Positions 33,823 to 36,800 of a stretch of 64,000 bases of DNA are shown here, piece by piece (positions within the stretch are counted from its first letter, which is position 1; each line of letters begins with the position of its first letter). The stretch lies in the NCBI GenBank assembly GCA_964036195.1, contig OZ038456.1, positions 27,071,792 to 27,135,791 on the forward strand, read 5' to 3'. The position numbers and the translations under genes are program-made. This DNA comes from Sphaerolaimus hirsutus (Eukaryota > Nematoda > Chromadorea > Monhysterida > Sphaerolaimidae). The notes under the pieces are model-generated. The model was given only the letters and a program-made list of their open reading frames with translations. It searched no databases and had not been told where the DNA came from.

Positions 33823-33885
33823 TCACCCAGCGGCCTCAAGTGTCTCCTCACTACTACCGCAGTCCCGCTGCGCACCCAGTTTGGC
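33823..33885 (-). CDS. MRPL39: MRPL39 exon 11 (stop)
   Basis: 20 codons AKLGAQRDCGSSEETLEAAG then TGA. Tail not conserved. Acceptor CCCCCAG is the right end of the introner-like intron 33886-34245. Confidence 0.8.
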   Translation of the reverse strand, partial: AKLGAQRDCGSSEETLEAAG

Positions 33886-36800
33886 CTGGGGGCACTCCCA
33901 GACCCTGTAAAAGACCCTGTAAAGTGTCAAATACCCTGTAAAATGTCATGTGTCATGTAAAAGACCCTGTAAAGTGTCAAATACCCTGAAAATGCCATGT
34001 AAAAGACCCTGTTTAGTGTCATGTGTATCCAAATATCATTTTATCGTATCCAAATCTATGTTTCTGTATTCAAATCTTACTTTTTGACAAAACATTAGGA
34101 TACAAAAACATGAGATTTGGATACGATAGAAAATATCTGGATACACATGACGCTTTACAGGGTCTTTTACATGACACATGACACACGACATTTTACAGGG
34201 TCTTTGACACTTTACAGGGTCTTTTACAGGATCTGGGAGTGACACCTGGTGCGCGAGGAGTCTGAAGAGCGAGTTGTCAACGCGCTGGCCGAGCGGCAGC
34301 GCCACGCCCGACGCCCGGTACAACGACCTGTCGCCGCTCTGGTCGACTTGTTGCAGCTGTAACAGGTGGAAATGTAAACATACCGTATTACCTCGAAATA
34401 CCCCCAGGGGGTTTATTATTTCGCCAGCAAAATTTGAGGGGGGGGATAATTCGAGGGGGGGTTTATTCGAGGGGGGGTCTATTATTTCGCCAGAAATTTT
34501 CGGAAATTCCCCATACGCAGACGTAGAAAAATCGAACAGGCATATATTACTGTATATACACAAAAACCCTGCCCTAACGTCACTTAATCATCAGTTTTAA
34601 CGTGTGTTCTGCATAGTACAGATCACAAACTGCGGTATTTGTCATGTACGTTCACGTTACACTCAATTTTAGGGGGGGGGGGGGTTATTATTTCCTCAGC
34701 CGAAATTTAGGGGGGGTATTTCGAGGGGGGGGGGGTTAATTCAAGGGGGGGATAATTCGAGGTAATACGGTACTTTATTACAGAGGATTTACGCCATATT
34801 TACAGAGTACTACACAGGGTCAAAAACTTTCATTTCAATGTTTTATTCGTGTTTCCTTTTTTAAAAATACAAGGTCAAAAATATGTGAGTAGCGATAGCA
34901 AAACCTCTAGAAAAATGTGCTGACAGTGATTTTCAAGTGCATTTTCTTTAATAGCTTGTCCAATGTTCTACTATTGTATCGCTTGATTTGCGTTTTACAC
35001 GCATGTGTTTTACATTTTACATGGATTTTTAACTAAAAGTAACGAAATATTCTTTTTCTAACGCTGTGATAAAAATCCAAAAGGTTTAAAAAACGTTCTC
35101 GAAATTCCCTTTGCCGTCATTACACACCGCCATGTAAAACGAACATGTGCGACAGCAAAACGCTGCATGTGGTCAGTGCCGGCGACCAGGGGCACTTGCG
35201 GTTCATCAGCCAAGTCCACGTGACTGCCCAGCCTGTACACGAGCACCCTGCTGCCCTGGGGCAGTCCCGCACACTGTAACATGTCCTGTAAAGTGTAAAA
35301 TGCCATGCAAAATTGTCAAATTTTGTCAAATGACATGGAAAGTGTCCTATTTTTATTTATGTGGTTACTGGACATTTCACATTTCACAATGTATTTCACA
35401 TGTCTTGAGACACCTTGCATGACATTTTCCATCTTACAGGGCACTTTCTAGGGTGCGGGACTGTCACCTGGCTGGCCTGCATGGCCACGTCGGGCAGGCG
35501 GGCCAGTCTGTGGGGGCTGTGCTCGAACAACTGCTCCGCAGCGGACAGATCCACGTAGAGCGGCTCGATGGCGTAGTTGCGCTGGCGCAAGCGACGCACG
35601 CACGCCGTGTTTAGAGCGAGCATTTCTGCCTGGGGAGGGGGTACTTTCGATTTGTGATTATGATTGTGAATGGTGATTTTGGCGGTTGAATTTTTTTGTT
35701 TTAGACAGAAATGCAAATATTGAGATAATGGAAGTATTTGGCAAATTCAAATTATTTTTCGTATTGGAGAACACATCCAAACATGGAAACAATACAGTGA
35801 GTATTCTAGCACATTGGCGCACATCACACTGCAAAGTGTAACGATTGGGTCCGATCGGATCGGACGTTTTAATTTCCGCCCGGGCAGAATTATAAAGTCA
35901 GTTCGGACGATTTTATTTACGACACATCTAAAAAACCAAATTTACTAAGTTACAAATCTAAATTTACTGAAATTTGGGTCGGTTCGGACGATTTTTAAAT
36001 CCACCCATCTTTTTAATTCCGCCTTTGAATTCCACCCATGTAAAAATCGTCCGAACTTCCCGTTACACTTTGCAGTGTGCGGTGCGCCATTAGGCTTGTC
36101 AACTTTGGTTGGCGCAAGCCTTTCTGACGCCTTCAAAAACAAACTATTCAAAGACAGAAATATCGAACAATCATAATGCGAAAAGCCGGGTTCTCAAAAG
36201 GTTCTTAAGACTGCATGTCGCAACAAATAAGCACAGCCAAAGAAGTCTGTCTAAAATGTACTAAACCCACCGTACTAGGCTTCCACCCATCCAAATTTTC
36301 GGCCCAAAATTCGCATTCGAAACGTCCGTCGCTGGCTGCGGTGCGAATCGCCAACACAGGCACAAATAAAACGTATTTAATTATATTTACGTACAACGTG
36401 CAAACGTACGTTGCGTGTAGGAGTGTCTGTGCACGGTGACGTTGTGACTTCTGTGCAGGCAAGTCTCCATCAGATGGCCCAGAGCGAAACTGCACCCGTG
36501 CCAGAATGACTGCAAACAGGGAATTAAAGCGTTTATACTCGGCGTACATGATACTCTGCCCACGCACTGATTTATGTCTCGTGTTGGAAGCGTGCCAATG
36601 ATTATTAAATCATGCGATTTCCGTAAAAAGATGAAATAATTCATCGATGTGAATATGAATAACATTATAACAACAATCAATTTTGTCATCTTTTAATGAA
36701 ACTCGCATGCGTTAACAATCGTTGGCACACATCCAGCGGGAACCACGCGTGCAAGGTGTAAAGTAACCGGAGTATTCAGAGTGGTTATTTCCGCAAGTGG

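What the first reader, a model, noticed from the sequence alone, without database searches (positions are those of the whole stretch)
33886..35467. Two introns of MRPL39 are complete transposable elements: candidate introners with a CCAGG target
Seen: introns 35256-35467 and 33886-34245 start and stop with inverted repeats (TGACAGTCCCGCAC / GTGCGGGACTGCC; TGTCACTCCCAGA / TCTGGGAGTGCCC). Each is bounded by CCAGG. The donor is CCAG|G from the left copy plus T from the element; the acceptor is CCAG of the right copy. Removing the intron leaves exactly one CCAGG and an intact MRPL39 frame. Known: introners in several lineages arise when a DNA transposon and its target duplication together supply splice sites. 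Inference: this CTGTAAA family made these introns. I cannot name its superfamily; a 5-bp duplication limits the choice.
Basis: partly seen in the sequence, partly recalled or inferred. Interest (0 to 1): 0.92.

Follow-up and report, generated by a model that had tools for sequence, protein, structure and literature searches.

The report
Jumping DNA that becomes introns
Two introns of an animal gene are short mobile DNA elements whose ends, together with three duplicated bases, appear to supply the splice signals, and the same kind of element sits as an apparent intron in other genes of this genome, some of them with an unusual TG instead of AG at the intron end.

Summary
MRPL39 introns 35256-35467 and 33886-34245 (minus strand) are inverted-repeat elements too short to encode a transposase; removing them leaves an intact frame. 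Two corrections: the duplicated target is 3 bp (CWG, inside a CCWGG preference), and the element can be placed. CWG duplication, GGG-type inverted repeats and an animal host match the NuwaI group of PIF/Harbinger-like (PHIS) transposons. The element's GTG end gives the GT donor; the second CWG copy gives the acceptor. The genome holds about 1,900-2,400 exact copies of each end pattern tested. In 12 loci a known domain or homologue runs across the junction once the element is removed, always with the same element orientation to the gene. Unexpected: a CTG target should give a TG acceptor, and 6 of the 12 are such GT...TG insertions (one with a sub-threshold domain match), including CNOT9 and arginyl-tRNA synthetase, for which no second copy was found. 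In predicted folds the upstream AGs lie inside a strong hairpin and the splice sites outside it. In human, TG is reported never to be the sole 3' splice site. No RNA data were available: splicing is inferred. New variant of a known kind.

The parts
35256..35467 (-). MRPL39 intron A (212 nt): element 35259-35467 plus the acceptor-side CAG copy 35256-35258
   Evidence: Sequence and splice join; hairpin; second gene copy shares it
35468..35470 (-). donor-side copy of the 3-bp target CAG (CTG on the + strand) of intron A
33886..34245 (-). MRPL39 intron B (360 nt): element 33889-34245 plus the acceptor-side CAG copy 33886-33888
   Evidence: relatives in the genome
34246..34248 (-). donor-side copy of the 3-bp target CAG of intron B
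35471..35629 (-). MRPL39 exon upstream of intron A (its last 3 bases are the donor-side CAG 35468-35470)
   Evidence: start of the exon set by eye
35145..35255 (-). MRPL39 exon between intron A and the conventional intron
   Evidence: 3' end set by eye
34357..35144 (-). conventional GT...AG intron of MRPL39 (ends TTACAG), for comparison
   Evidence: Boundaries read by eye
34249..34356 (-). MRPL39 exon between the conventional intron and intron B
33823..33885 (-). last coding exon of MRPL39 with stop codon

Best explanation
A nonautonomous PHIS/PIF-Harbinger (NuwaI-like) element inserts at CCWGG and duplicates CWG. One element end reads GTG and, next to the duplicated CWG, makes a CWG|GT donor. 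The other end reads ...GGGASTGCCCC and is followed by the second CWG copy, which becomes the acceptor. A CAG target gives a GT-AG intron, as in both MRPL39 introns. A CTG target gives a GT-TG intron, which this animal's spliceosome appears to accept. The near-palindromic RNA is predicted to fold so that upstream AGs are buried in the stem and only the first 2-4 and last 5-7 nt stay unpaired; this may direct exon joining to the AG or TG at the hairpin base. Shown: anatomy, copy number, target duplication, intact proteins across junctions, one orientation in all homology-supported cases. Predicted: the hairpin. Inferred: splicing itself, use of TG, the role of the hairpin, mobilisation by a NuwaI-type transposase.
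For: Exact fit of element ends to splice sites and frame; copy numbers with controls; CWG duplication; NuwaI features in PMC4482050 and the CCWGG target of Harbinger3_DR. Pfam domains across the junction in 11 of 29 sense-joined loci, 10 above cut-off, plus MRPL39 intron A: all 12 have the GTG end first; 0 of 22 antisense loci. CNOT9 107/107 residues ungapped and no second copy found; ArgRS 92 residues ungapped and no second copy found. Hairpins. Retention gives an in-frame stop in 5 of 6 GT...TG genes and a frameshift in CNOT9.
Against: No RNA evidence. L115/L116, a duplicated gene, may carry the element antisense near an exon end. L064 has a GC donor and no clear acceptor. Frames were partly picked by hand, and 5 of 6 GT...TG cases come from samples chosen for CTG ends. 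Some in-frame GT-AG alternatives exist for 3 of 6 GT...TG genes. No transposase with matching ends was found. Genome-wide, CAG exceeds CTG on the donor side (2426:1861) but not on the acceptor side (2000:2094), which I do not explain.
Confidence: 0.8

Rival explanations
1. Only CAG-target copies are introns. CTG-target copies in exons are unspliced and mark broken, polymorphic or pseudogene alleles.
For: TG is reported never to be the sole 3' splice site in human (PMC2374985, passages). CTG/CAG pairs such as L127 and L140 could be copies rescued by a T to A change.
Against: CNOT9 and ArgRS have no other copy matched in this genome and keep conserved coding sequence on both sides; 5 of 20 intact CTG/CTG elements read interrupt recognisable domains, all in one orientation.
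Confidence: 0.17
2. The elements are removed from RNA by a route guided by the hairpin, not by the spliceosome (like SOS splicing or the nonconventional introns of euglenids).
For: Strong end-to-end hairpins; SOS splicing exists in animals (PMC13247085, passages).
Against: All 12 supported cases have one orientation and a GT donor; a repeat-guided route should not care (that expectation is recalled, not tested).
Confidence: 0.12
3. In CTG cases splicing uses other GT-AG sites nearby and the protein changes slightly.
For: A TTTACAG lies 19 nt before the end in 11 of 12 introns folded; in-frame GT-AG pairs within 60 bases exist for L152, L149 and L136.
Against: None exists within 60 bases for L005, L147 and L155; the alternatives add or delete residues at positions that are continuous with the homologues.
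Confidence: 0.1
4. MRPL39 had ordinary old introns here, into which the elements later inserted.
For: Both introns are shared with a second MRPL39 copy 52 kb away and so predate that duplication.
Against: Element ends coincide with the splice sites at both ends of both introns, with the target copies spanning the junction.
Confidence: 0.04

Closest known systems
Introners (PMC9860276; abstract, outline and passages seen)
   Same: Repeated DNA elements with TIRs and target duplications that make introns; some carry the 5' splice site and borrow the 3' site from the target
   Different: Here the transposon group can be proposed (NuwaI-like), and the target base appears to decide between an AG and a TG acceptor
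NuwaI group of PHIS (PIF/Harbinger-like) transposons (PMC4482050; abstract, passages and section 7 seen) and Harbinger3_DR (PMC3016246; passages)
   Same: CWG duplication, TIR beginning GGG, animal host; CCWGG target
   Different: Short copies without transposase; one end reads GTG; no autonomous partner found; acts as an intron
TG acceptors in human (PMC2374985; passages) and TG/CG acceptors in 34 Micromonas introns (PMC3879977; passages)
   Same: TG at the 3' end of a GT intron
   Different: In human only as an alternative near an AG; in Micromonas not described as made by the element's target
Non-canonical introns of Fritillaria (PMC13326754; passages) and hairpin introners of Amoebophrya (PMC7789003; passages)
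   Same: Non-AG ends; in Amoebophrya inverted repeats forming hairpins, in Fritillaria altered U2AF
   Different: Here the donor stays GT and the acceptor is AG or TG, set by the transposon target

Membership tests
Introner | Repeated element whose ends coincide with intron ends at several loci | tested here: met
   MRPL39 A and B and 11 loci with a domain across the junction
Introner | Spliced from RNA | not testable with these tools
   No RNA data; inferred from intact proteins
Introner | Recent gain: relatives lack the intron | not testable with these tools
   No related genomes held for G000
PHIS / NuwaI transposon | 3-bp CWG target duplication | tested here: met
   CWG in 14 of 24 elements on both sides, CAT in 1
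PHIS / NuwaI transposon | TIR 12-61 bp, usually starting GGG | tested here: met
   One end GGGGCASTCCC; the other reads GTGNCASTCCC, so the GGG start holds for one end only
PHIS / NuwaI transposon | DDE transposase and Myb/SANT protein in the autonomous partner | tested here: inconclusive
   163 matches to PF13359 listed as a lower bound; the one copy read in full seems to have other ends
SOS splicing substrate | Orientation-independent removal directed by inverted repeats (recalled expectation) | tested here: inconclusive
   Hairpin predicted, but 12 of 12 supported cases have one orientation; removal itself not observable

The most novel reading that the evidence does not exclude
An animal in which a Harbinger-type introner has made hundreds of introns whose only 3' splice site is TG. 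The W of the transposon's CCWGG target decides whether a new intron is GT-AG or GT-TG, and the spliceosome has become tolerant of TG, helped by a hairpin that hides competing AGs. Very roughly, 21 intact CTG/CTG elements in 12.7 Mb of one chromosome scale to about 575 genome-wide, and 5 of 20 read interrupted a recognisable domain.
Probability: 0.57. Interest if true: 0.9.

Novelty: new variant of a known kind. Interest (0 to 1): 0.82.

Why it matters
It ties an identifiable transposon group and its exact target sequence to the making of splice sites, so that where new introns arise becomes predictable. It also offers a natural experiment on 3' splice-site choice: the same element, in the same orientation, ends in AG or TG by chance of target. 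If TG use is confirmed, conserved genes such as CNOT9 and ArgRS of this animal depend on an acceptor that is reported never to be used alone in human.

Tried and rejected
A 5-bp duplication was rejected. The abundant PF13359 family as the mobilising partner is not supported by the one copy read. A codon-usage classifier for exon orientation was set aside: at least two training loci (L003, L061) were trained in a wrong frame, and L143, L146 and L141 scored higher antisense than sense; it is not used for any count. L097 (nuclear receptor) was dropped as exonic because its domain does not span the junction. L006 matched Bestrophin-like below cut-off and not across the junction. L064 and L115/L116 are unexplained. 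Sense loci without any domain hit (18 of 29) are not counted, although several read like coding sequence. U2AF1: loci on C14 and C16 and a contig copy match; whether the second is a divergent U2AF1 or another CCCH factor was not resolved. The species was not determined; an animal is inferred from gene content. Literature searches listed no paper that I recognised as describing a Harbinger introner or an introner with TG acceptor; only openly licensed papers are searched and most were seen as listings only.

Full report
What is there. On the minus strand the window carries the 3' part of MRPL39; the joined exons match mL39 chains of the PDB, best E = 0.0001. Intron A (35256-35467, 212 nt) and intron B (33886-34245, 360 nt) start GTG and end CAG, have stops in the frame entered from the upstream exon, and leave an open frame when removed. 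Their ends are inverted repeats: GTGACAGTCCC.../...GGGACTGCCC and GTGTCACTCCC.../...GGGAGTGCCC. A third intron of the gene, about 34357-35144, is an ordinary GT...AG intron ending TTACAG (read by eye).

The element. Relatives found by DNA search share one plan: CWG | GGGGCASTCCC ... GGGASTGGCAC | CWG, read from either strand. In 15 of 24 distinct elements the 3 bases outside both ends are identical (CWG in 14, CAT in 1). A 5-bp CCWGG duplication would demand C and G just outside; 21 of 34 sides have them. CCWGG is therefore a target preference, not the duplication. The two ends usually differ: one reads GGGG, the other GTGN; a few copies (L060, L070, L124) read GTG-like or GCG at both ends.

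Family. The NuwaI group of the PHIS (PIF/Harbinger-like) superfamily is defined by CWG duplications, with TIRs of 12-61 bp usually beginning GGG, and was found only in animals (PMC4482050, section 7). Harbinger3_DR targets AAACACCWGGTCTTT (PMC3016246, passages). The present element meets the duplication feature and, at one end, the GGG start. A transposase with matching ends was not found: PF13359 matches are plentiful (163, a lower bound), but the one copy read seems by eye to have different ends. I call the element NuwaI-like.

Numbers. Exact end patterns in the 348-Mb genome, reversed-pattern control in brackets: CCAGGTGNCASTCCC 2426 (4), CCTGGTGNCASTCCC 1861 (0), GGGASTGCCCCCAGG 2000 (2), GGGASTGCCCCCTGG 2094 (0). 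On C1 up to 12.7 Mb, 35 of 190 listed donor ends pair with a listed acceptor end 90-500 bases on: 21 CTG/CTG, 10 CAG/CAG, 3 CTG/CAG, 1 CAG/CTG. The donor side has more CAG than CTG, the acceptor side does not; I have no explanation.

Elements inside coding exons. Sense-joined translations of 29 loci were scanned against Pfam. In 11 a domain crosses the junction, 10 above the curated cut-off. GT...AG: L003 Exo_endo_phos2, L059 RTC_insert, L061 TSP_1, L101 DDE_Tnp_IS1595, L127 7tm_2. GT...TG: L005 SpoU_methylase, L136 Sugar_tr, L147 C2H2 zinc finger, L149 tRNA-synt_1d, L152 Rcd1 and, below cut-off, L155 7tm_1. With MRPL39 intron A that makes 12, and in all 12 the GTG end comes first in the gene's sense. 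Antisense translations of 22 loci gave no domain across the junction. The loci came from DNA search (not conditioned on target letter or orientation), from evenly picked pattern hits (20 of the 100 listed, the window's own copy replaced by its neighbour; 20 of the 100 listed) and from 15 paired CTG/CTG elements. Five of the six GT...TG cases come from CTG-selected samples, so the AG:TG ratio here is not a genome frequency. Frames and loci were partly chosen by hand.

GT...TG introns. When the target is CTG, the only register of a precise removal that begins with GT is GT...TG. CNOT9: the peptide joined at the element ends aligns 107 of 107 residues without a gap to PDB CNOT9, and the genome search found only the two halves on either side of the element. 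Arginyl-tRNA synthetase: 92 residues ungapped, again only the two flanking halves. A TARBP1 homologue and a sugar transporter are also continuous, as is an adhesion GPCR for a CTG/CAG case. The TARBP1 homologue has two copies; both carry the 5' part of the same element after the same exon, and in one a further 1.6-1.8 kb separates the exons, its acceptor not read. Of 20 intact CTG/CTG elements read in full on C1 (L125, L126, L130, L131, L136, L141-L155), 5 interrupt a recognisable domain, one of them sub-threshold. Retention would bring an in-frame stop in 5 of the 6 GT...TG genes and a frameshift in CNOT9. In-frame GT-AG alternatives within 60 bases exist for L152, L149 and L136, but they add or delete residues; none exists for L005, L147 and L155.

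Possible mechanism. The 12 introns folded all form an end-to-end hairpin (MFE -80 to -147 kcal/mol); MRPL39 intron A folds better than shuffles with z = -7.0. In the 12, the first 2-4 and last 5-7 nt stay unpaired. An AG sits 19 nt before the end in 11 of 12, within the stem. I propose that the GT is read as usual, that buried AGs are skipped or serve only early recognition, and that exons join at the exposed CCCCCAG or CCCCCTG. In human, TG acceptors are reported only as alternatives in tandem with an AG, within 28 nt, and never alone (PMC2374985, passages). The buried AG lies within that distance, so it may help define the intron while TG is used for exon joining. This is inference.

Why not SOS splicing or DNA excision. 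Removal guided by inverted repeats alone should not depend on orientation (recalled expectation). The 12-of-12 orientation and the GT at the donor argue for the spliceosome. SOS splicing is known to me from recall and from passages in PMC13247085. One possible counter-case, L115/L116, gave no Pfam hit.

Comparison. Introners with TIRs and TSDs are known, including ones that carry the 5' site and borrow the 3' site (PMC9860276, passages). Non-AG acceptors are known in Fritillaria with duplicated U2AF (PMC13326754, passages), among Amoebophrya introns, part of which are hairpin introners (PMC7789003, passages), and in 34 Micromonas introns with TG or CG (PMC3879977, passages). In some searches I did not find described a Harbinger-type introner whose target base decides between AG and TG.

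Limits.

Noticed in passing
L002 (G000:C9:27053071-27056276): A second MRPL39 copy about 52 kb from the window's gene carries both introns at the same sites (intron A 80%, intron B 96% identical).
   Followed up: partly
L106 (C3:5555350-5555960): Proline-rich coding repeats in which the element recurs after each repeat unit (two complete copies and the end of a third), so introns and exons seem to have been copied together.
   Followed up: partly
L104 and L111: Two similar copies of what reads by eye as a Harbinger-type transposase gene hold the element within the coding sequence.
   Followed up: no
L029-L058: A young, very uniform PF13359 transposase family with well over 100 matches, each with a roughly 190-nt interruption of the domain; the one copy read seems to have other ends.
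   Followed up: partly
window 34380-34770: The conventional MRPL39 intron holds another repeat with TACCTCGAAATACCCCC-like ends and G/C runs, seen by eye also near other loci.
   Followed up: no
G000:C14:3032343-3038016, C720:101293-108657, C16:15183255-15191469: Two chromosomal U2AF1-like loci plus a contig copy; a divergent second U2AF1 would bear on TG acceptance.
   Followed up: no
window 37327, 25345 and 15700 (minus strand): Further ends of the same element type, apparently decayed or truncated.
   Followed up: partly
L115 and L116: A duplicated gene may carry the element antisense near an exon end, with CAG/CTG flanks: the one candidate against the orientation rule; its hand-translated peptide had no Pfam hit.
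   Followed up: partly
L064 (C6:24219600-24220900): A phosphatase-like exon interrupted by a copy with a GC donor and no CWG on the acceptor side.
   Followed up: no
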